Shown here: positions 1,105-11,269 of the stretch, in pieces
Layout: the number at the start of each line of letters is the position of its first letter
Position numbering within the stretch: position 1 is the first letter of the stretch
Origin: Clostridium sp.
Lineage (GTDB): Bacteria; Bacillota; Clostridia; Lachnospirales; Lachnospiraceae
Assembly (NCBI GenBank): GCA_023664775.1
Contig: JAMPEW010000018.1
Span: 1-54,298, forward strand
Length of the DNA: 54,298 bases
Reading direction: 5' to 3'
Position numbers and translations under genes: made by a program
The notes under the pieces: generated by a model
Database searches by the model: none
Seen by the model: only the letters and a program-made list of their open reading frames with translations
What the model was told of the DNA's origin: nothing

Positions 1105-1160
1105 CTTTACAGGAAAGCAACTTATATCGGCAATAATAGTTTTATTCTTTGCGTAAAGTA

Positions 1161-1169
1161 TGATATAAT
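1161..1169 (+). promoter_or_regulatory. Extended -10 promoter of the SMC/vWA operon
   Basis: TGATATAAT matches an extended -10 (TGn plus TATAAT); no convincing -35 is seen 17 bp upstream. Transcription would begin near 1176, inside the first arm of the repeat-hairpin region, so the repeats form the start of the 5' untranslated leader. Confidence 0.55.
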
Positions 1170-1171
1170 AT

Positions 1172-1321
1172 GTCCTAAGGAGGGACCCAGCGAAGCTGGG
1201 AGGATTCCTTAGGACAAAAGACCATAGAGTCAAAGGGACCCGGCGAAGCTGGGAGGATTCCTTAGGACAAAAGACCATAGAGTCAAAGGGACCCGGCGAA
1301 GCTGGGAGGATTCCTTAGGAC
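1172..1321 (+). repeat. 53-bp tandem repeat forming GAA-capped hairpins in the operon leader
   Basis: Three copies, at 1182-1234, 1235-1287 and a partial 1288-1321, with an exact 53-base period. Each copy holds a six-pair hairpin with a GAA loop (CCCAGC / GCTGGG). In copies two and three the left arm is CCCGGC, so one pair becomes G-U, which still pairs in RNA. Each copy ends with TCCTTAGGAC, which can pair perfectly with GTCCTAAGGA; that partner arm occurs only once (1172-1181). One left arm therefore competes among three right arms. The inter-hairpin spacer is identical between copies, so this is not a CRISPR array. It lies between the promoter and the ribosome site of the next gene. Confidence 0.85.
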
Positions 1322-1358
1322 GTATTACATCATATTGTGTAAGGAGAATATACTACAT

Positions 1359-1973
1359 ATGAATTTTTTAGCAGTTAATGCAATCAGCGTTATTATGTTT
1401 ATCATTATATTGCTTATGCTGTCTGTATTCAAAAACACCATCGGCGTGGGCGTCAGCATTGCTTTTACGGCTGTGTGGCTTATTTATACAATTGGAGCAA
1501 ATCTTATGCTTTTAAAGGGACAGAAAGCAAAGGAAAAGCTTAAGGACAGCGATAGAAAGGGAGTTTTTAAAAGACAGGTTGATGCCATCAGCAGACAATA
1601 CGAGAGCATAAAATCAAGAGAGGATTTTTTTGCAGATAATACGGAAGACAGCATGAAGGACATGTATTATAAAATTCTTGAGCAGATGCATTCTAACATG
1701 GACAGTGCTGCGGCATACATAGAAACCTATGATTATTACACAAGACCCAATCCGGTATATTTAGATAACTTGTGCAGGCAGGGAGATATTCTCGTAGGGA
1801 AATTCAACAGGCTTGTGGAGCAGATTGTTGACATAGATACGAATTTAACAACGCTTGACATGGCATATGTGGATGACCTGCTAAATTGCCTTGAGGAGGT
1901 AAAAAAGCAGGAGCTGGGACAATCCGATTATTCGGTCCAAGCTTCTGATACAAAGGAAAAAACAAGTATATAA
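1359..1973 (+). CDS. Small membrane protein with two N-terminal helices
   Basis: A 204-residue protein. ATG 1359 is preferred over an upstream in-frame TTG because AAGGAG lies 12 bases before it. Two hydrophobic segments (about residues 3-23 and 28-50) form a membrane hairpin. The remainder is a charged, helical cytoplasmic region, with likely coiled coil from about residue 55 onward. First gene of the five-gene set ending with the SMC ATPase; 19 bp separate it from the next gene. The hairpin-plus-helical-tail layout is loosely like XpaC-type proteins encoded near TelA and vWA genes, but the resemblance is too weak for a family name. A membrane scaffold or anchor for its neighbours is the simplest guess. 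Confidence 0.7.
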   Translation: MNFLAVNAISVIMFIIILLMLSVFKNTIGVGVSIAFTAVWLIYTIGANLMLLKGQKAKEKLKDSDRKGVFKRQVDAISRQYESIKSREDFFADNTEDSMKDMYYKILEQMHSNMDSAAAYIETYDYYTRPNPVYLDNLCRQGDILVGKFNRLVEQIVDIDTNLTTLDMAYVDDLLNCLEEVKKQELGQSDYSVQASDTKEKTSI

Positions 1974-1992
1974 TAAAAGGGAGGATACATAA

Positions 1993-3651
1993 ATGAACAA
2001 CGACGGAAAGAAAATGGTATTCTGTGGTGTTATCGTAGTAATGTTAATGGCAGGCATTATTATGGCACTGCTGACAAAAAATATTTCTGACAAAAAAGAA
2101 CGGGACGACAGACCTGTTGACGAGCTGCTTGAGGATATAAGCGTTACAGAGGCAACCCCGAAAAAGGGTACCATATCACTTGAGGACGATACGCTGTATG
2201 ACGAGCTTCCAAGTATTGATAAATATCCCCTTGCAGTACAGGGCTATGGCGACATTGACATTGAGATATTTACTTCCGGAGAAAAAGCAGGTCAGGATAC
2301 GGACAATTTTCTGATAGAAGCTGCGGAAAAATTTAATGCAGGGGGCTATACGCTTGAAAGTGGAGAAACCATAAGTATCTCCGTGCGTTCGGTAAGCTCA
2401 GGACTTGCTGCGGACTATATCCGTTCAGGAAGATATTATCCTGATTTGTATACGCCGTCCAATGAATTGTTTGGAGATTTTGCGAAGGCGGGCGGAGCAA
2501 AGCTTGACATGCTTGCAGACCGTCTTGTAGGAAATACGGCAGGAATACTGGTGAAAAAGGATTCGGGCTACACAGATGTAAATAGCGTAATCAATGATGT
2601 AAAAACGGGAAAGCTTAATTTGGGATATACAAATCCACAGACAAGTGCAACAGGACTTAATCTTCTCATTGAGATTTTAAAAACCTCAGACGAAAGCAAT
2701 ATGTTCAGCGATACGGCAATAGAAGCATTTTCGACCTTTAACGGCAACATTCCTTACATTGCATATACAACCCAGCAGATGCGTGACAGTGCAGGAAAGG
2801 GAAATTTTGATGCGATTGTTTCAGAGTATCAGGCATATATAAATGACAAAAATCTTGTAAGCCAATATGATTTTATACCATTTGGAGCAAGACATGACAA
2901 CCCGCTTTATATTGTTAATAAAAGCAACAAGTCGCCACAGGAGATTGCGGCAATGGATATCATTAAGGATTATCTGCTCAGCAGTGATGTACAGGCGATA
3001 GCCACAAGAAATGGATTTAATGCAAATGACGACTATCAGGATGACTATACGACAAGCGGCTCCGAGATTGTTCAGGCATTGGAGGTATACAAAAGACACA
3101 AGGATAGTGGAAATGACATTATAGCAGTATTCGTTGCCGACTGCTCAGGCAGCATGGACGGCGAACCGATGCAGCAGCTTAAGTACAGTCTGTCCAACGG
3201 TGCCAAATATATCAATGATAACAATTACATTGGCATGGTAAGCTATTCATCCGATGTGACAATCGAGCTTCCGATTGCACCGTTTGACTTTAATCAGAGA
3301 AGTTATTTTCAGGGTGCCATTGATGGACTTCGGGCATCGGGAAGCACGTATACCTATGAGGCTTTAGTTGTGGCGATAGATATGGTGCAGAAAAAGCATG
3401 AGGAAAATCCTGATGCGAAATGCATGATTATTCTTCTGTCTGACGGCTATGCAAACGGCGAGCTGCATTTAGATAATATACAGGGTACGATTGCAAATGC
3501 GAAGATACCGATTTACACAATCGGATATGGCAATGATGCAGATATCAATGAGCTGCAGAACGTGTCAGGAATTAATGAAGCTGCCAGCATTAATGCAGAC
3601 AGCGAGGATATTATTTACAAGATAAAGAGCTTATTCAACAGTCAGTTGTAG
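1993..3651 (+). CDS. Membrane-anchored substrate-binding plus vWA domain protein
   Basis: A 552-residue protein after GGGAGGATACATAA. One N-terminal hydrophobic segment (about residues 8-27) with no lipobox Cys suggests a membrane-anchored extracellular protein. After an acidic linker, residues ~75-360 resemble an extracellular solute-binding domain. Residues ~375-550 are a von Willebrand A domain with an intact metal-ion-dependent adhesion site: DCSGS beginning at Asp383, a GSTYTYEAL threonine and LLSDGYANG. vWA domains bind protein ligands through a Mg2+ or Mn2+. The fusion could bind a small ligand or surface peptide and pass this to a partner. It sits between the small membrane protein and the SMC subunit genes, 19 bp from each, implying cotranscription. 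Confidence 0.82.
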   Translation: MNNDGKKMVFCGVIVVMLMAGIIMALLTKNISDKKERDDRPVDELLEDISVTEATPKKGTISLEDDTLYDELPSIDKYPLAVQGYGDIDIEIFTSGEKAGQDTDNFLIEAAEKFNAGGYTLESGETISISVRSVSSGLAADYIRSGRYYPDLYTPSNELFGDFAKAGGAKLDMLADRLVGNTAGILVKKDSGYTDVNSVINDVKTGKLNLGYTNPQTSATGLNLLIEILKTSDESNMFSDTAIEAFSTFNGNIPYIAYTTQQMRDSAGKGNFDAIVSEYQAYINDKNLVSQYDFIPFGARHDNPLYIVNKSNKSPQEIAAMDIIKDYLLSSDVQAIATRNGFNANDDYQDDYTTSGSEIVQALEVYKRHKDSGNDIIAVFVADCSGSMDGEPMQQLKYSLSNGAKYINDNNYIGMVSYSSDVTIELPIAPFDFNQRSYFQGAIDGLRASGSTYTYEALVVAIDMVQKKHEENPDAKCMIILLSDGYANGELHLDNIQGTIANAKIPIYTIGYGNDADINELQNVSGINEAASINADSEDIIYKIKSLFNSQL

Positions 3652-3670
3652 GAAAGATACCGGTGCGATA

Positions 3671-5245
3671 ATGGCATTAAAACACGTGATGATAAATGAA
3701 ATAATATCAGAGCACAGTACAAGAATGCAGAATCTGAAAAAATATTATCCGTTCTTTGTGCTAAGTGAGACTACGTTTTCCCAATATAAGGAGGGAAAAT
3801 ATAGTCTCCTTGACATGGGCTATATTACTATGGCGTCGTTAAGATTTTTCATCAACGAAAATAATTTCCATGAAAAAGATATTACCTACGAGGAGTACGA
3901 GACATTTCTCACAGAGCTGCTGCGAAGGGATTTTGACATTGAGGAGGAGCCTGAGGAGGAAAAACAGCTTGTGCTTTATATATTTGACAAGCTGAAAAAT
4001 GACGGAAGGGCATTTGAGTTTAAATTTTATGACCCTGAAACAAAGACAGACAAAATAGCGAGAGTGAAGCTTATCGACAGCAGGGTGGAAAACGGAGCAG
4101 TCTACTATTACATAACCTCCGAGGGTATCGAGTTTTATCTTGATACAAAGGAGATAAAGGACGAGAGCAGGATTAACATTTCCCAGCTTCTTTTGGAGAA
4201 GCTTATAAGCTCAAATAATTTTAAGGGCGGCATCGATGTTGTAAAGCGGATTAACAGTCAGGTAAAGCAGCTTTCCCTTGAAAAAGAAAATGTTTTGAAG
4301 CTTCTTGGCGTGGATATTTTTGAAGGGACAAGAGCATATGAGCAGTACATGGAAACGACTGCAAAATGGTTTAGTGACGAGCAGAAGCTTTTTGCAAAAA
4401 ATAAGGCGTTGGTTGATAAGGCGATAGAGCGTGCAGGCTATGAGAACGATGGGGAAGGAACGCAGGGGCTAAGGTCGAAAACATTGGAGGACATAAGCAG
4501 TCTTGAGACGGAGCTTAAAAAAACCATATATAATCACAGTCAGCTTATTGCTGAAACCGTGGAGCTTACAAAGCTTGCAGATTCCATAATCAGCAGGGCA
4601 AAGCTTAGGAAGCTTCGACCCGTATTTGATTTCAGGCAGATGATGTCCAAGCTGATGGAACGGGATAAGCCCGCAGATATGGCACATGTGCTGATGCCTT
4701 TTTTTGCGCCGAAGCTTAACAAGTCATTTTCCATAAAAAGCATTGACAATATGCTTTCATTGAAAAATGATGATAAGGATAAGGGAGAAAAACTGGAAAA
4801 AAATGCCCTTGACCCTGATTTTAAATACGATGACGAGATATTGGACGCAAAGATTGGAAAAAATTTCTATATGTTATTTATGGAGCTGTCAGACCAGATT
4901 AAAAAGTGGGAAAAAATAGATTTGAAGCAGTTTAACGGTATTCTTGAAATAAAGTTTGGAAATGAAATATATTCGAACAGGGATTATTACTCCTTCTTGG
5001 CACATTTGGCGGGGAAGAACAGCTACGACATTGAAAAAATGCTAGAAAAGCAGGACACCATGCTTGAGGAAATGGTCGCTGCGCATATGTCGGAGGAGGA
5101 CATAATAAGGTTTCGGGATCTGTCGTTTTCCATAGAGCCCCGCAGTGATGAGATTATAAATCTCGTGCCCACAGATGCTTCAGGGGGAAATGTGGAGGAT
5201 AATGCATTTGTAACGGATATGGTTTTTGAGAGGAGGAACGGGTAG
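3671..5245 (+). CDS. JetA/kleisin-like subunit of a Wadjet/MksBEF-type SMC complex
   Basis: A 524-residue, mostly helical, charged protein without membrane segments. The N-terminal ~170 residues look like a winged-helix region (YYPFFVLSETTFSQY, the EEPEEEKQLVLYIFDKL helix), followed by long helices with coiled-coil character. Position and size match JetA-like subunits (DUF5716/JetA families of Clostridia), the kleisin-like linker that bridges the two ATPase heads. It lies directly before a KITE-like gene and an SMC ATPase gene, and only two bases separate its stop from the next ATG. The assignment rests on gene order and general appearance, not on diagnostic residues. Confidence 0.65.
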   Translation: MALKHVMINEIISEHSTRMQNLKKYYPFFVLSETTFSQYKEGKYSLLDMGYITMASLRFFINENNFHEKDITYEEYETFLTELLRRDFDIEEEPEEEKQLVLYIFDKLKNDGRAFEFKFYDPETKTDKIARVKLIDSRVENGAVYYYITSEGIEFYLDTKEIKDESRINISQLLLEKLISSNNFKGGIDVVKRINSQVKQLSLEKENVLKLLGVDIFEGTRAYEQYMETTAKWFSDEQKLFAKNKALVDKAIERAGYENDGEGTQGLRSKTLEDISSLETELKKTIYNHSQLIAETVELTKLADSIISRAKLRKLRPVFDFRQMMSKLMERDKPADMAHVLMPFFAPKLNKSFSIKSIDNMLSLKNDDKDKGEKLEKNALDPDFKYDDEILDAKIGKNFYMLFMELSDQIKKWEKIDLKQFNGILEIKFGNEIYSNRDYYSFLAHLAGKNSYDIEKMLEKQDTMLEEMVAAHMSEEDIIRFRDLSFSIEPRSDEIINLVPTDASGGNVEDNAFVTDMVFERRNG

Positions 5246-5247
5246 AC

Positions 5248-5961
5248 ATGGAAGAAAAAAGTCTTGAAAAGGCACTGGATATATATTCCACACTGATAAC
5301 AGGGCAGGAGGTGTCCCGTTCCAATGCAGATACAAGGGAGCTTTATGAGGAATATTACGGCAATCAGGCAGTTTACGACATTACAAACCGATTGATGAAA
5401 AAGCTGAACCTGAATGTTTATGAGTATGAGGATTCCATATACATAACGGCAGGGGACGGAAACCGTATATTCGGATACACGAATGACGATATGAAAAGAT
5501 TGTTGGGACTTCGGGTCAACAAGGAGCTTTACATGGTGTATTTTATTATGTACAATGCCCTGCTTTCCTTTTATCAGGACTCTGCCGCATATCAGGTAAA
5601 GGAGTATGTAAAGCTTTCCGATATGCTTGAGCAGGTCAGCTCCTATCTTTCAAGAATAACGTCCGATTTGTCGGTTTACTCCATGAATGAGCTTGAGGAG
5701 GACAGCTTTAAGACAATCGCTCTTTTGTGGGACGAGCTTCCCGCCGTGACCTCTGACGACAAGGATAAAAACAGGGCGTCAAGGGCATCACGCATAGGCT
5801 ACATTAAGCTTACCTTTAACTTCCTTGTGGCACAGAAGCTTTTTGTGGAGGTCGAGGACAGATATTATCCCACAAAACGGTTTAAGGCGATAGCAGAGAA
5901 TTATTTTGAGGAATATAAGGGCAGGATATATAAGGTGCTGGGAGGTGAAGCCGATGCCTAG
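5248..5961 (+). CDS. JetB/KITE-like winged-helix subunit (DUF6063-like)
   Basis: A 237-residue soluble protein resembling DUF6063/JetB proteins, the tandem winged-helix (KITE, MukE-like) subunits that bind the kleisin. Visible features are the N-terminal helical segment, LNLNVYEYEDSIYITAGDGN, and a C-terminal winged helix ending FVEVEDRYYPTKRFKAIAE, a classic wing-and-strand pattern. The start follows GAGGAGGAACGGGTAGAC, part of the preceding gene's end. Its stop overlaps the start of the SMC gene by eight bases, so the three subunits are translationally coupled. Confidence 0.7.
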   Translation: MEEKSLEKALDIYSTLITGQEVSRSNADTRELYEEYYGNQAVYDITNRLMKKLNLNVYEYEDSIYITAGDGNRIFGYTNDDMKRLLGLRVNKELYMVYFIMYNALLSFYQDSAAYQVKEYVKLSDMLEQVSSYLSRITSDLSVYSMNELEEDSFKTIALLWDELPAVTSDDKDKNRASRASRIGYIKLTFNFLVAQKLFVEVEDRYYPTKRFKAIAENYFEEYKGRIYKVLGGEADA

Positions 5962-8900
5962 TATAAACAGAATAAGGGTAAATAACGTAAAATATAATTT
6001 CGGCACCCAGTTTTATGACGATTTCACCATGAGAATGTACGGAAAAAACACGCTCTACGATTTGGCAAACGGTGGAGGAAAAAGCGTGCTTATGCTTCTC
6101 CTTATGCAGAACATGATACCAAATTGTACCTTGGATGAGAAGCAGCCCATAGAAAAATTATTCAGGACAGGAAACGGAAATACGACAATTCACTCTCTTG
6201 TGGAATGGAGGCTTGACAAGGAGGACAGCACAGAGGGCTACAGATATATGACGACAGGCTTTTGCGCCAGAAAGGCAAAGGAGGCAGGAGATGACACCGA
6301 GACGTCAAAGGACGTTGCATCGGTGGAATATTTTAATTACTGTATTTTTTACAGGGAGTACAATAAAAATGATATTATAAATCTTCCCCTCGTAAAAAAT
6401 GGCGAGCGGGTCAGCTTTCAGGGGCTTAGAACCTATTTAAAGGAGCTGGAGCATAAGGATATGTCCCTTATGGTAAGGGTATTTGACAGAAAGGGCGAAT
6501 ATCAGAGGTTTATCAGCAGCTATGGACTTCACGAAAGCCAGTGGGAGATTATAAGGGGCATCAATAAAACCGAGGGCCATGTAAGAACGTATTTTGAAAA
6601 TAATTACAAAACAACAAGGCGTGTTGTCGAGGATTTGCTCATAGAGGAAATCATTGAGAAGGCGTTTATGGTAAAAACCCAGCGTGAGGATGCGGGCGAT
6701 GATGCTATGGCAAGAATGCTTATGGACATACGTGAGCAGCTTACCATACTTGCCAAAAAGAAGAAGGACATGGCGGGCTATGACCGTCAGATGGAGCTTG
6801 TAGGCGTGCTTTCCGACAAGGTAGGCTCATTTATGGATTTGTATGAGGAACTCAGCCGACTTGAAAACCTTATGGCAGCCATATGTGTTACGGGCGAGGA
6901 GTTTGCAAAGGATGACGAGGAGAAAATGGCGGAGCTTGCAGGACTTCGGGACGAAAAACGGGCAAAGAAGGATGAGCAGAGAAAATATATGGAATGTCTC
7001 AAGGTGGCAAGGGATAAGAATAAGCTGTCCGAGCTGTACGATAATCTTGGACAGATAGAGGCTGCCATAGAGGAGACGGAGGATAAGCTTAAGGAGCTTA
7101 CCGATGATTTGAATTTTAAGGAGGGCATGAACGAATATATAGATTATATGTCCGACAGAAAAAAATATCACAGGCATGATGCCATGCTAAAGACGATAAC
7201 GGCACAGTCTCCTTTCGATCAGGATATGCTTCATACATATGCCTACAATATAAAAATGCGGATGGATGCATCCATGGCAATCGTGCAGGAAAAGATTGAC
7301 GTAATCAAAGCACAGATGAAGGAAAAACAGGAAAATGTTGAAAATAAACAGCGGCTGCTCCAGGAGGCAAGGGTGGAGCAGGCGGTTTCCGTAAATATAA
7401 AAAAAGCATGTGATGATGAAATTGTTTCCTTAAGCGAGCAGCTTGCAGGACTTAAAATGTCCATGAGCAATTTAAACTTTGCTACCTTTGGAGAACACAG
7501 GGAGCAGCTTGATGAGGATATAAAAGATTTGGCATGGAAAATTTCTGATAAGGCAGCGAAAATCAAGGAGAGCAATGAAAGGCTTAGTGAAGCTAGGCTT
7601 GAGCTTTCAAGGCTTGAGGCTGCCAAGGCTGAAAATGATAAGCTGATAGAAGCCCTTGAAGCAAAGGAAAAGCAGTATAATGAAGCAAGCCAAAAGCTTG
7701 ACAACATAAAGACGGTTTATGCCTCAGGCGGGGAGGAGCTGCTTACGGTAATTACTGAACGGATTACCTCCACCGTACTTGAAAATGCTGCCATTGCCGA
7801 TGAGATTAAGCGGCATAAAAAAAGAGTAAAAAATCTTTCGGAGGGCAGGATTATTCCTGTTTCTGCCGCTGCAAAGAAGCTTATGGATTATCTTGAGAGA
7901 AGACATGGCATACAGGCTATGTATGGCATGGATTACATTTCTGCGCTTCCACAGGATAAACAGAGGGAGCTTTTGGAAATTAACCCTGAGCTTCCATATG
8001 GCTTGCTTGTGCAGGAATATGATATTATAAGGGATGACCCTAATATTTCAGGCGTTGATACAGGCAGTGAAATGGTAAATATATTTGATATGGATGCCAT
8101 TTTGGAAAAGGCATTCATTGTGGGAGAAAATGTTTTGAGCATACGTGCAGATGCAGAATTTCTCACAAGCGAGGAAACAAGGGTAAAGCTGCTTGAGGAG
8201 GAGGAAGGCAATATTAAGGAGCTTGCCTTGAAGCTTGAATTTAAGGAGGAAATGCTTGCGACCTACAGGCAGGATCAGCAATTTATCATCCGTATGCAGG
8301 AGAGCGAGCTTATGGATGCGGCACGCAAGCTTCGAGATGCAAGACGTCTTATGTATGAGCAGGATGCGGATATTGCTGCCTGTCAGGAGAAAAATAAGGA
8401 CATCAAGCATGGGATAAAGGCTTTGGAGCAGGAGCGGGAGGAGCTTACGGCACGCTATGAGGAAAAGCTCGGAGATGTTGGAAGGCTTGACACCATAACG
8501 AGACTTTCTGCCATGGTGGAAGAAAAGGAAAAAACTGCCGATGCGTGTAAGAAAAATATAGACAGGCTTGAAGGAGAAATCAGAGGACTGACAGCCGCCA
8601 TTGAGGATGGCTCAAGGGCGGATGAGGAGGCTGTTGCTAATCTTGAGGCGCTTGAGAAAAAGCTTCAGGATTTGGTTACGGAATGGGAGGTACACTATAA
8701 GCCGTACTATAACATTGATAAGCCTTGCGATGTACTTACGTTAAGCGATGATGACATAAAGGCAAGATTTACGGCAATGCTTGACGAGGGCAGAGATGAG
8801 ATTAAGACCATTGAGGATAAAAAGCTTGTTATGGAAACCTTGAAGCATGCAATGGACAGAACGCTCAAGGCAATTGAAAAAAGAGGAATCAGCGTTGATG

Positions 8901-10354
8901 CCTTAAAGGAGCAGGAGAAAAACAACCAAATATATTCGTCAAATGATAAAATGCTGGCAGACTGCAAGGAGAACATTGAAAAACAAAAAGCGAGATTAAA
9001 AACATTTCAGGACAAGAAAAAGGAAGTGGAGGCTGCGGCAAGCAGGCTGGAGGGCAGCATAGAATATGCCATCAGCAATATTGAGGCGGCATTTGGAAGC
9101 TATGAGGAGCAGAGTGCAACTGCATCTGAAATCGTTACAAACCTGAAAAATGGTAAAGAGGTGCTTGAACGTCTTGAGGCGGAGGCAAAGCAGTGTGATG
9201 AGCAGTATCGGAATTATTCCAAGCAGCAGGGATATATGCTTGACTTGTATAAGGATGTGAAGCGTATTATTGTCACAAATGATATAAGCTTGGAGCATGC
9301 GAAGCCTGTTTCGGAAAATAAGGATAAGCTAAGAGGGATTTTTGAGGACAACCTTTTAGCCTACGACAGGAGCCGTAAGTCCTTGGAAAAGGCGAAAAGC
9401 GAGCTGATGAAATTTAAGGGTAATACTGCCGTTTCACTGGACGAGATGGAGGTTTACGAGCTTGCGGCAACCATAAGAAATGATGTTATCATACCTGATA
9501 CCTATGATGCAGCCAAGGAGCTTATGGACAACTTAAAATCCATAGTCGATTACATAAGGCTTGAGAGGGATAGGATTGAAAAAAGCCTTGTTGACATGGA
9601 GGCAATAAAGGCAAACTTTGAGGAGCAGTGCTTACAGCGGTGTATGGATGTACGTACAGAGCTGGACAAGCTGCCGAAGCTTTCACGGATTATGGTTGAT
9701 GATGAGGCGGTACAGATGGTAGGGCTTACAATACCATACATTAAGGATGAATTTTTAAAGCAGAGAATGTCCGATTACATTGACGGCATCGTATCGCAGG
9801 CTGATGATTATGAAAATGACAGGGAGCGGATTAAATTTATAAGGGGCAGCCTTGCACTGAAAAAGCTCTTTGGCGTTATCGTGACGGATATGAACAAAAT
9901 AAAGCTGAGCCTTTATAAGCGGGAACGCATCAAGGAGCAGAGCAGGTATTTAAAATACGAGGAGGCTGTTGGAAGCACGGGACAATCCCAGGGTATCTAC
10001 ATACAGTTCCTTGTGTCCATCATCAATTACATTTCAGGCATGTATCAGCTTGGAAATGAGGAGATACGGACAAAGACAATATTTATTGACAATCCCTTTG
10101 GCGCTGCAAAGGATGTATATATATGGGAGCCGATATTTGCGCTGCTTGCCGCAAACAACGTGCAGCTTATCGTTCCTGCAAGAGGGGCAACGCCTGCAAT
10201 TACGGGACGCTTCGATGTAAATTACATCCTCGGACAGCAGATGGCAGGCGGCAAACAGCTTACGGTTGTGTGTGATTATACGAGCAGGGCAGATCAGGAG
10301 GAGTTAGAATATAAGGATTTGGAATTTGAGCAGGTAAGCTTTGATTTTATTTAG
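5954..10354 (+). CDS. JetC-like SMC/MukB-type ATPase
   Basis: A 1466-residue protein; ATG 5954 after GGGAGGTGAAGCCG is chosen over an upstream in-frame ATG. The N-terminal head has a P-loop, NGGGKS, at residues 39-44. Two very long heptad-rich coiled coils (about 230-620 and 750-1290) flank a central globular hinge-like region (about 620-740). The C-terminal head carries an ABC signature, GSTGQSQG, and Walker B TIFIDNPFG with Asp1379. This is the SMC layout used to extrude DNA loops in Wadjet, MksB and MukB. Two oddities: the first P-loop Gly is replaced (LANGGGKS), and Asn1380 occupies the usual catalytic Glu position. No JetD topoisomerase-like nuclease gene lies nearby, so the locus is either a JetABC complex with a different effector or a housekeeping-type SMC variant. 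Confidence 0.88.
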   Translation: MPSINRIRVNNVKYNFGTQFYDDFTMRMYGKNTLYDLANGGGKSVLMLLLMQNMIPNCTLDEKQPIEKLFRTGNGNTTIHSLVEWRLDKEDSTEGYRYMTTGFCARKAKEAGDDTETSKDVASVEYFNYCIFYREYNKNDIINLPLVKNGERVSFQGLRTYLKELEHKDMSLMVRVFDRKGEYQRFISSYGLHESQWEIIRGINKTEGHVRTYFENNYKTTRRVVEDLLIEEIIEKAFMVKTQREDAGDDAMARMLMDIREQLTILAKKKKDMAGYDRQMELVGVLSDKVGSFMDLYEELSRLENLMAAICVTGEEFAKDDEEKMAELAGLRDEKRAKKDEQRKYMECLKVARDKNKLSELYDNLGQIEAAIEETEDKLKELTDDLNFKEGMNEYIDYMSDRKKYHRHDAMLKTITAQSPFDQDMLHTYAYNIKMRMDASMAIVQEKIDVIKAQMKEKQENVENKQRLLQEARVEQAVSVNIKKACDDEIVSLSEQLAGLKMSMSNLNFATFGEHREQLDEDIKDLAWKISDKAAKIKESNERLSEARLELSRLEAAKAENDKLIEALEAKEKQYNEASQKLDNIKTVYASGGEELLTVITERITSTVLENAAIADEIKRHKKRVKNLSEGRIIPVSAAAKKLMDYLERRHGIQAMYGMDYISALPQDKQRELLEINPELPYGLLVQEYDIIRDDPNISGVDTGSEMVNIFDMDAILEKAFIVGENVLSIRADAEFLTSEETRVKLLEEEEGNIKELALKLEFKEEMLATYRQDQQFIIRMQESELMDAARKLRDARRLMYEQDADIAACQEKNKDIKHGIKALEQEREELTARYEEKLGDVGRLDTITRLSAMVEEKEKTADACKKNIDRLEGEIRGLTAAIEDGSRADEEAVANLEALEKKLQDLVTEWEVHYKPYYNIDKPCDVLTLSDDDIKARFTAMLDEGRDEIKTIEDKKLVMETLKHAMDRTLKAIEKRGISVDALKEQEKNNQIYSSNDKMLADCKENIEKQKARLKTFQDKKKEVEAAASRLEGSIEYAISNIEAAFGSYEEQSATASEIVTNLKNGKEVLERLEAEAKQCDEQYRNYSKQQGYMLDLYKDVKRIIVTNDISLEHAKPVSENKDKLRGIFEDNLLAYDRSRKSLEKAKSELMKFKGNTAVSLDEMEVYELAATIRNDVIIPDTYDAAKELMDNLKSIVDYIRLERDRIEKSLVDMEAIKANFEEQCLQRCMDVRTELDKLPKLSRIMVDDEAVQMVGLTIPYIKDEFLKQRMSDYIDGIVSQADDYENDRERIKFIRGSLALKKLFGVIVTDMNKIKLSLYKRERIKEQSRYLKYEEAVGSTGQSQGIYIQFLVSIINYISGMYQLGNEEIRTKTIFIDNPFGAAKDVYIWEPIFALLAANNVQLIVPARGATPAITGRFDVNYILGQQMAGGKQLTVVCDYTSRADQEELEYKDLEFEQVSFDFI

Positions 10355-10381: not shown

Positions 10382-11269
10382 ATGCACTACAAGGAAGTGA
10401 AGGCGATTTTATCACCTCAAAACGGCATGAATTTGTACAGGGGCTGTACACATGGCTGTATTTACTGTGATTCAAGAAGCAAATGCTACAGAATGGATCA
10501 TGATTTTGAGGATATAGAGGTTAAGGCGAGAGCGGAGGAGCTTTTAGAGCATACCTTAAAGCGCAAGCGCAGAAAGGGAATGATTGCGACAGGCTCCATG
10601 ACTGACCCATATGTGCCGATTGAGAAAGAGCTGCTTGTGACGAGGAGATGCTTAAATCAGATAGAACGATTTGAATTTGGGCTTGTGATACAGACAAAAT
10701 CAACGCTTATATTAAGGGACATAGACATACTTGACAAAATCAACCGTAAGACAAAATGTATTGTAGCCATGACAATGACTACATATGATGAAACGCTCTG
10801 TAAAATCCTTGAGCCAAATGTGAGCACTACGAGGGAGCGCTTTGATGTTCTTATGGAGATGAAGAAAAGGGGCATACCGACCATTGTGTGGCTTACCCCC
10901 ATACTTCCCTTTATAAACGACACGGAGGAAAATATAAGAGGCATCATGGAATACTGTAAAGAGGCGGGCGTATATGGTATAATATATTTTGGCGCAGGAA
11001 TGACGCTTCGTGAGGGCAACAGGGAATATTTTTATGAGCAGCTAGATAAGCATTTTCCGGGCATGAAGGAGCAGTATATAGAAACCTTCGGTGATGCCTA
11101 TGAGGTGGTAAGCCCCCGTGATAAGGAGCTTACGGCACTGTTTAACAGCATTTGTGATGAAAATGATATTGTCAGGGATCAGGAAGAACTCAGGCGTTAT
11201 ATGCGTGAATACAAAAATAAAACAACCTGCGACCAGATAAGCATGTTTGACTTTGGAATGGAAGCGTAG
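10382..11269 (+). CDS. Radical SAM protein of the spore-photolyase-like group
   Basis: A 295-residue protein with the radical SAM cluster motif Cys22-x3-Cys26-x2-Cys29 (GCTHGCIYC), which binds a 4Fe-4S cluster and S-adenosylmethionine to make a deoxyadenosyl radical. The TGSMTDPY, QTKS and ITPILPF-like (LTPILPFIND) segments are typical of the SplB-related group widespread in Clostridia. True spore photoproduct lyase repairs UV lesions; these relatives mostly have unknown substrates. The gene begins 27 bp after the SMC gene on the same strand, so it may be cotranscribed. A DNA-repair link to the SMC complex is possible but not shown. Confidence 0.85.
   Translation: MHYKEVKAILSPQNGMNLYRGCTHGCIYCDSRSKCYRMDHDFEDIEVKARAEELLEHTLKRKRRKGMIATGSMTDPYVPIEKELLVTRRCLNQIERFEFGLVIQTKSTLILRDIDILDKINRKTKCIVAMTMTTYDETLCKILEPNVSTTRERFDVLMEMKKRGIPTIVWLTPILPFINDTEENIRGIMEYCKEAGVYGIIYFGAGMTLREGNREYFYEQLDKHFPGMKEQYIETFGDAYEVVSPRDKELTALFNSICDENDIVRDQEELRRYMREYKNKTTCDQISMFDFGMEA

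What the first reader, a model, noticed from the sequence alone, without database searches (positions are those of the whole stretch)
1172..10354. Operon joining a Wadjet/Mks-like SMC complex to a membrane protein and a surface SBP-vWA protein, without JetD
Directly seen: five co-directional genes with gaps of 2-19 bp or overlap, in the order small two-helix membrane protein, membrane-anchored substrate-binding plus vWA fusion, JetA-like, JetB-like, SMC ATPase. Known: Wadjet defence systems are JetABCD, where JetD is the topoisomerase-VI-like nuclease that cuts plasmid DNA once loop extrusion stalls. No JetD-like gene is in this window upstream or downstream. Inference: the complex may couple an extracellular signal to DNA loop extrusion or plasmid/phage control, with an unrecognised effector, or act as an endogenous chromosome-organising SMC. 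The combination with an SBP-vWA fusion is, to my knowledge, not a described defence architecture.
Basis: partly seen in the sequence, partly recalled or inferred. Interest (0 to 1): 0.82.

Follow-up and report, generated by a model that had tools for sequence, protein, structure and literature searches.

The report
Wadjet-type SMC operon without its nuclease
A gut-type bacterium and its relatives carry the DNA-looping part of the plasmid-defence machine Wadjet as a steady chromosomal gene set without the DNA-cutting subunit, which suggests a defence machine turned housekeeper; the two envelope genes beside it in this genome are recent, separate neighbours.

Summary
In detail: five co-directional, tightly packed genes (g1 membrane protein, g2 SBP+vWA, jetA, jetB, jetC) and no JetD-like gene found. 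JetABC is a JetD-less branch of type III Wadjet: JetA models like MukF, JetB like Wadjet JetB, and JetC keeps its ATPase motifs. It is present in 36 of 37 genomes of the genus, beside canonical Smc, diverges in step with Smc, and forms one clade apart from the JetD-linked type III relatives tested. In the genus its fixed partner is a downstream radical-SAM gene (31 of 31 loci where the contig continues), not g1-g2. g1-g2 stand before jetA in 3 of 106 loci; elsewhere they form their own two-gene module (20 of 20 g2 loci). In the window lineage they displaced jetA's usual upstream region, leaving a 19-bp gap, so co-transcription is likely but evolutionarily young. Best reading: a vertically inherited, non-cleaving, MksBEF-like SMC complex derived from Wadjet by loss of JetD, working on the chromosome; the chromosomal role is inferred. 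The signal-coupled architecture is not supported as a conserved unit. Novelty: new variant of a known kind.

The parts
1159..1339 (.). three 53-bp direct repeats (1181-1339) with a 23-bp inverted-repeat pair (1159-1181 / 1312-1334); lies just before g1
   Evidence: exact 24-base core not in any other fetched locus
1359..1973 (+). g1: two-helix membrane protein with helical tail, 204 aa (open frame from TTG 1335); not part of the conserved jet unit
   Evidence: no Pfam or NCBIfam family above cut-off
1993..3651 (+). g2: membrane-anchored substrate-binding (107-342) + von Willebrand A (379-538) protein; not part of the conserved jet unit
3652..3670 (+). 19-bp gap that keeps jetA's ribosome-binding stretch (GGAAAGATA); the upstream region seen in G253, G283, G284 and G270 is missing
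3671..5245 (+). jetA, kleisin subunit (MukF-like), 524 aa
5248..5961 (+). jetB, KITE subunit (DUF6063), 237 aa
5954..10354 (+). jetC, SMC ATPase, 1466 aa; Walker A, signature and Walker B motifs intact
   Evidence: PADLOC JetC3 E=0; motif conservation
10382..11269 (+). radical-SAM protein (PA0069/Rv2578c-like, below the curated cut-offs), the gene that does stay with jetC in this genus
   Evidence: 31 of 31 genus loci where the contig continues

Best explanation
JetABC here is a vertically inherited, chromosomal SMC complex of the MukBEF/MksBEF/Wadjet superfamily that arose from a type III Wadjet by losing the JetD nuclease. Shown: kleisin (JetA), KITE (JetB) and SMC ATPase (JetC) are present with intact motifs; there is no JetD beside them; the JetD-less proteins form one clade; the genus keeps the set nearly universally and it diverges together with canonical Smc. 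Inferred: JetC dimers bridged by JetA and JetB use ATP to enlarge DNA loops, as their relatives do, but cut nothing; the complex works on the chromosome as a second condensin next to Smc (compaction, segregation or repair-linked looping). The g1-g2 pair is a separate two-gene module, probably of the envelope, that came to lie before jetA in the window's group of close relatives and took the place of jetA's upstream region, so jetABC there is probably read from the g1-g2 promoter. That is a young change of expression, not a conserved machine part.
For: Distribution: strong JetA orthologue (E<1e-82) in 33 of 250 family genomes, 36 of 37 genus genomes and 18 of 18 good-quality ones. JetD: none by my JetD3 HMM in 106 unique loci, 93 with at least 1.5 kb upstream of jetA, whereas 4 of 4 weak-JetA loci of the family (used for training) and 7 of 8 loci in other families (not used for training) have JetD directly upstream of jetA. 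Genome-wide JetD_C hits in only 14 of 67 genomes with the strong JetA, none on the contig of the JetABC locus. Tree: JetD-less JetA rows one side of a branch, 100/99, with JetD-linked rows on both sides of it in the midpoint-drawn tree (and JetC). Vertical: JetC-Smc distance rho 0.70, JetA-Smc 0.77, 0 of 2000 permutations as high, 27 genomes. Smc present in 35 of 37. ATPase motifs: NGGGKS and the signature stretch invariant in 126 rows, which include duplicate records. Folds. Split loci: in 6 of 6 genomes where jetA stands alone, jetC is kept elsewhere. g1-g2 displacement.
Against: No experiment shows any chromosome role; none of the tools can. The set is not universal in the family (33 of 250) and outside the genus its neighbourhood varies. 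The defence library PADLOC files these proteins as Wadjet III. A JetD of unusual sequence elsewhere in the genome cannot be excluded: PF09983 missed 1 of 4 control type III JetDs, my JetD3 HMM was run on loci only, and the genome is 96% complete in 60 contigs. One class-level locus (L329, G608) has no JetD3 hit either, yet falls among the JetD-linked rows. Treekit warns that long branches meet in the trees, among them the join of the clade's side with L326/L327. The root is not inferred, so loss of JetD (rather than its gain elsewhere) rests on parsimony. Absence from plasmids and phages says little, because JetD-linked type III and type I JetA queries found no or one plasmid record too. The vertical signal is a correlation of distances, not a reconciled gene/species tree.
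Confidence: 0.68

Rival explanations
1. Nuclease-less anti-plasmid system: JetABC still acts against small circular DNA, by topologically trapping or silencing it, or with a host nuclease or an unrecognised effector instead of JetD.
For: Kinship with Wadjet III; canonical Wadjets are also present in some of the same genomes, so the lineage does meet plasmids; the conserved radical-SAM neighbour is of unknown role.
Against: Near-universal in the genus, diverging with Smc, rather than patchy; no constant extra gene over the whole clade that could be the effector: radical-SAM gene in 41, TPR-AAA in 23 of 106 loci, and the TPR-AAA gene is present in 36 of 40 JetABC-negative genomes.
Confidence: 0.17
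2. One reading: g1-g2-jetABC is one machine that couples an extracellular signal to loop extrusion.
For: Same strand, 19-bp gaps, jetA's upstream region displaced, so co-expression is likely in three genomes; no + strand terminator-like site between g2 and jetA.
Against: 3 of 106 loci, one group of close relatives only; G253, with 93%-identical JetA, has no g2 match in its genome at E<=1e-20; g1-g2 are a pair elsewhere in 20 of 20 loci.
Confidence: 0.05
3. JetD acts in trans: JetABC borrows JetD from other Wadjet operons or from a divergent unlinked JetD.
For: 14 of 67 genomes with the strong JetA have a JetD_C hit elsewhere, one of them (G227) below the family cut-off.
Against: 53 of 67, among them the window genome, have no hit. 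Of the 14, ten sit beside genes of Wadjet size or match; four (G253, G261, G014, G115) were not assigned to an operon.
Confidence: 0.05
4. Decaying remnant: JetABC without JetD is a dead Wadjet drifting towards loss.
For: Not found at the strong level in 217 of 250 family genomes; one jetA in two pieces (G197, L060).
Against: Intact ATPase motifs, deep clade, 36 of 37 presence, subunits kept even after the locus split.
Confidence: 0.05

Closest known systems
Wadjet type III (JetABCD / PADLOC JetA3-JetB3-JetC3-JetD3)
   Same: All three SMC subunits by sequence; gene order jetA-jetB-jetC; JetD-linked type III rows are the nearest relatives in the trees made
   Different: No JetD; in 11 of 12 type III relatives mapped at jetA loci JetD stands directly before jetA (4 of 4, 7 of 8). 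The four JetD-less JetAs scanned (window; L041, L061, L246) score best on PDLC00560, the three JetD-linked ones on other models
MksBEF (e.g. Pseudomonas aeruginosa), SMC trio without MksG/JetD
   Same: Kleisin, KITE and SMC, no nuclease, coexists with Smc; a review says that P. [quoted passage not shown]
   Different: A separate JetD-less branch close to type III, in Lachnospiraceae; no tree with P. aeruginosa MksBEF was made
MukBEF
   Different: No sequence match in phmmer; here Smc is present as well, whereas MukBEF replaces it (recalled)
g1-g2 pair, next to TelA or PspA in some genomes (possible envelope-stress module)
   Same: g1-like gene directly upstream of g2 in 20 of 20 loci; TelA follows in 6 of 20 (two confirmed by Pfam); PspA in one (L160)
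   Different: No TelA in 6 of 6 genus genomes that have g2; the window's g1 and two g1-like relatives match no Pfam family above cut-off

Membership tests
Wadjet (JetABCD) defence system | JetA kleisin, JetB KITE, JetC SMC ATPase | tested here: met
Wadjet (JetABCD) defence system | JetD Toprim nuclease in the operon | tested here: not met
   (0 of 106 loci) against positive controls (7 of 8); whole genome by PF09983 none
Wadjet (JetABCD) defence system | restricts plasmids by cleavage of small circular DNA | not testable with these tools
   needs transformation or conjugation assays
Wadjet (JetABCD) defence system | patchy, accessory distribution | tested here: inconclusive
   core within the genus, 36 of 37, but 33 of 250 in the family
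MksBEF-like SMC complex without MksG | three-subunit SMC operon lacking the nuclease | tested here: met
MksBEF-like SMC complex without MksG | coexists with Smc-ScpAB | tested here: met
   Smc in 35 of 37 genus genomes, own included; ScpA and ScpB not searched
MksBEF-like SMC complex without MksG | organises or segregates the chromosome | not testable with these tools
   needs deletion, Hi-C, microscopy
MksBEF-like SMC complex without MksG | closer to MksBEF than to JetD-bearing Wadjet III in a tree | not tested
   no MksBEF sequences in the trees
Five-gene signal-coupled SMC architecture (reader) | g1-g2 conserved with jetABC | tested here: not met
   3 of 106 unique loci
TelA-type envelope module (g1-g2) | TelA encoded with the pair | tested here: not met
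   no PF05816 match in the window genome; 6 of 20 other g2 loci have it next door

The most novel reading that the evidence does not exclude
Lachnospiraceae hold a natural case of an SMC defence complex turned housekeeper: a single loss of JetD in a type III Wadjet gave a second condensin that became core in at least one genus and lives beside fully armed Wadjet III paralogues in some of the same cells; in the window species its expression was then captured by an envelope-sensing two-gene module, so envelope state may tune chromosome looping.
Probability: 0.2. Interest if true: 0.75.

Novelty: new variant of a known kind. Interest (0 to 1): 0.5.

Why it matters
A review suggests that chromosome-organising MksBEF, and perhaps MukBEF, descend from Wadjet, MksBEF by loss of the nuclease (PMC10586767). 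Here the JetD-less clade and JetD-bearing type III relatives sit in one bacterial family, even in the same genomes (G273, G151, G174), and some JetD-less members are in isolates (Eubacterium ruminantium ATCC 17233, Eubacterium sp. MSJ-21). That makes the step testable by gene deletion and by adding JetD3 in vitro. It also warns that defence models (PADLOC PDLC00560, PDLC00571 and PDLC00581 are the best hits) can label a nuclease-less complex as Wadjet.

Tried and rejected
Signal-coupled five-gene machine: rejected as a conserved unit. TPR-AAA protein as replacement effector: it follows jetC in many non-genus loci, but 36 of 40 JetABC-negative genomes have it too at E<=1e-30 (36 of the 37 that are of the family), three of the 30 loci shown with recR directly before it, so it looks like an ordinary neighbour; of 22 genomes searched, those of the window clade show only weak, split matches. 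TelA as obligatory g2 partner: rejected for this genus. Plasmid/phage absence as evidence for a chromosomal role: given up, because the JetD-linked plasmid controls behave alike; no such control was run for phages. Sequence search of solved structures with JetC and JetA: no hits. JetB N-terminus as a lost JetD contact: no clear motif lost or kept between the two sets by eye, not pursued. Promoter and terminator scan: near shuffle level, used only for the lack of a + strand terminator-like site between g2 and jetA. NCBIfam gave nothing for a JetD-less JetA or the type III JetD. The fold lists also hold unrelated entries (CorA and helical bundles for JetA; ORC and other winged-helix proteins for JetB); for JetA, a largely helical model of middling confidence (pLDDT 73, pTM 0.38), only the run of eight Muk chains at the top was used; that these chains are MukF is taken from entry titles and recall.

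Rows dropped before counts: one search removed 8 duplicate loci, by identical JetA ends, from 114 (the named loci L203-L234, taken from their contig lengths and maps as copies of loci already fetched, were not entered; G279's short locus L084 was not mapped). One search left out L060 (jetA in two pieces). One search left out four long rows (L324, L330, L064, L329) and 14 JetD-less rows for speed. One search used 27 of 36 genomes (those with full JetC and a fetched Smc). L329 (G608) has no JetD3 hit before jetA: not followed up.

Papers: PMC10586767 passages and section 7; PMC10197239, PMC12287153 and PMC10123090 passages; all others only as search listings. That a JetD-less type III clade in Lachnospiraceae is not in print is only what these searches of open-access papers show.

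Full report
Observation. The five genes are there, on one strand, with gaps of 19, 19 and 2 bp and an 8-bp overlap. g2 carries an SBP_bac_11 and a VWA domain; the last three match PADLOC's JetA3, JetB3 and JetC3 over nearly their full lengths. There is no JetD-like gene in the region, and PF09983 (JetD_C) finds none in the 2.65-Mb genome. The gene after jetC, 27 bp on, is a radical-SAM protein.

How it is distributed. JetA searched in 250 genomes drawn evenly from the family: 37 hits, 33 strong (E<1e-82) and 4 weak. In the genus: 36 of 37 genomes, the missing one 64% complete; 18 of 18 good-quality ones. Across the class: 11 of 341, of which 3 strong and all three in the family. Named carriers are mostly uncultured Lachnospiraceae plus isolates such as Eubacterium ruminantium (80 of 207 relatives kept).

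No JetD, and a clean contrast. With an HMM built from seven type III JetDs, none of 106 unique strong loci shows one; 93 have at least 1.5 kb before jetA. The 4 weak-JetA loci all have it directly before jetA (they were used for training), and 7 of 8 JetA loci from other families of the class have it there too (not used for training). Genome-wide, PF09983 hits 17 of 72 genomes: three are canonical loci, 14 are among the 67 genomes with the JetD-less set, none on the contig of that set. Ten of those 14 lie beside genes of Wadjet size or match: five of type I layout and two of type II layout by gene sizes, three type III by HMM; PADLOC confirmed one type I and one type II set. Four were not assigned: G253 (a type I JetD cut by the contig start), G261 (a type I JetD without an SMC-sized neighbour; its 480-aa neighbour was not scanned), G014 and G115 (short frames). 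G273 (same genus), G151 and G174 hold both the JetD-less set and an armed type III Wadjet. PF09983 missed G233's type III JetD, so absence from the window genome is likely, not certain.

One clade. In trees of JetA the JetD-less rows are one side of a branch: 46 rows, SH-aLRT 99; 32 rows after taking out long branches, 100/99. JetC says the same, 28 rows, 100. JetD-linked rows lie on both sides of the clade's stem under the midpoint root, so one loss of JetD is the simplest history; the root itself is not inferred, and the program warns of long branches that meet. PADLOC's model PDLC00560 is the best match of the four JetD-less JetAs scanned (window, L041, L061, L246), other models of the three JetD-linked ones: the defence library already holds this clade under the Wadjet name.

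Vertical and chromosomal. Canonical Smc is found in 35 of 37 genus genomes, the window's included (the two misses are 71% and 64% complete). Over 27 genus genomes JetC and JetA distances follow Smc distances (rho 0.70 and 0.77, 0 of 2000 permutations as high). In the genus the radical-SAM gene follows jetC in 31 of 31 loci where the contig goes on, with gaps of 9-143 bp. In other genera jetABC often lies between dnaX-ybaB-recR (names confirmed by Pfam on L056) and a TPR-AAA gene: 12 loci with recR upstream, 23 with TPR-AAA downstream, of 106. Three JetABC-negative genomes have recR directly followed by that TPR-AAA gene, an empty version of the site, and the TPR-AAA gene is common without JetABC (36 of 40), so it is no specific partner. 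In six named loci jetA stands alone with no match to jetB or jetC beside it, yet all six genomes keep jetC elsewhere: the subunits stay together in the genome even when the operon is split.

What g1-g2 are. g2 is found in 6 of 37 genus genomes, next to jetA in three (window, G269, G252), elsewhere in three. In the family 21 of 250 genomes have a g2 matched over most of its length; the other ten genomes with a hit match the VWA part only. In all 20 apart from the window a g1-like gene precedes it, in 6 TelA follows, in one PspA. G253, with JetA 93% identical, has no g2 and carries a GntR regulator and ABC-transporter genes in the slot, after the same MMPL transporter and a 718-729-aa exported protein that stand before g1-g2 in G252. 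The region before jetA in G253 is shared with G283, G284 and G270, and a short core of it with six more of the 41 upstream regions compared; in the window and G252 it is gone, and g2 ends 19 bp before jetA with the ribosome-binding stretch kept. Read-through from g1-g2 is therefore likely in this group, and it is a recent state.

Mechanism. Most likely JetABC extrudes chromosomal DNA loops, as its structural relatives do, without cleavage, as a second condensin beside Smc. Shown here: parts list, intact ATPase motifs, no JetD found, inheritance. Inferred: loop extrusion, target, cellular role. The main rival is a nuclease-less anti-plasmid function; the tools cannot decide between them.

Verdict. 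Observation confirmed; interpretation partly supported (SMC trio, no JetD, endogenous role), its central claim (SBP-vWA coupling) not supported as a conserved architecture. New variant of a known kind. Interest 0.5: the concept that Wadjet can lose JetD is in print (PMC10586767, passages and section 7), but this family gives a close, testable case.

Noticed in passing
window 1159-1339: Three 53-bp direct repeats with a 23-bp inverted repeat around them, MITE-like, just before g1; the exact 24-base core is in only one of 375 fetched loci, L096, which is the window's own region.
   Followed up: partly
window about 918-1079; L126:12331-12669:-: A ParE-like toxin frame of a toxin-antitoxin pair is cut short in the window, while a 112-aa version (Pfam ParE_toxin 5e-10) stands before g1 in relative L126.
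   Followed up: partly
L248, L250, L251, L257, L263, L265: jetA alone, without jetB and jetC beside it, in six named genomes; jetC is kept elsewhere in each. Two of these genomes (of L257 and L265) also carry a second, 25%-identical jetC.
   Followed up: partly
L202 (G273), L199 (G151), L197 (G174): Genomes with both the JetD-less JetABC and a type III Wadjet in the order D-A-B-C: natural pairs for comparing armed and unarmed versions.
   Followed up: partly
L361, L363, L366: dnaX/ybaB/recR genes (ybaB not called in L366) followed directly by the TPR-AAA gene in JetABC-negative genomes: the empty version of the site that holds jetABC in other genera.
   Followed up: partly
L041:1224-3689:- and relatives (cluster of 21): A common Lachnospiraceae protein with N-terminal TPR repeats, a long acidic middle and a C-terminal AAA-like ATPase, of unknown function; two neighbouring genes with weak matches to it stand elsewhere in the window genome (L332).
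   Followed up: partly
L190:8345-9670:- (G261): A type I JetD (PADLOC 2e-95) without an SMC-sized neighbour: perhaps the reverse case, a JetD on its own.
   Followed up: no
L329 (G608): A type III-like JetABC in another family without a JetD3 hit before jetA; it falls among the JetD-linked rows, so perhaps a second, separate JetD loss or a divergent JetD.
   Followed up: no
L060 (G197): jetA in two adjacent frames (409 and 126 aa), either a broken copy or an assembly error.
   Followed up: no
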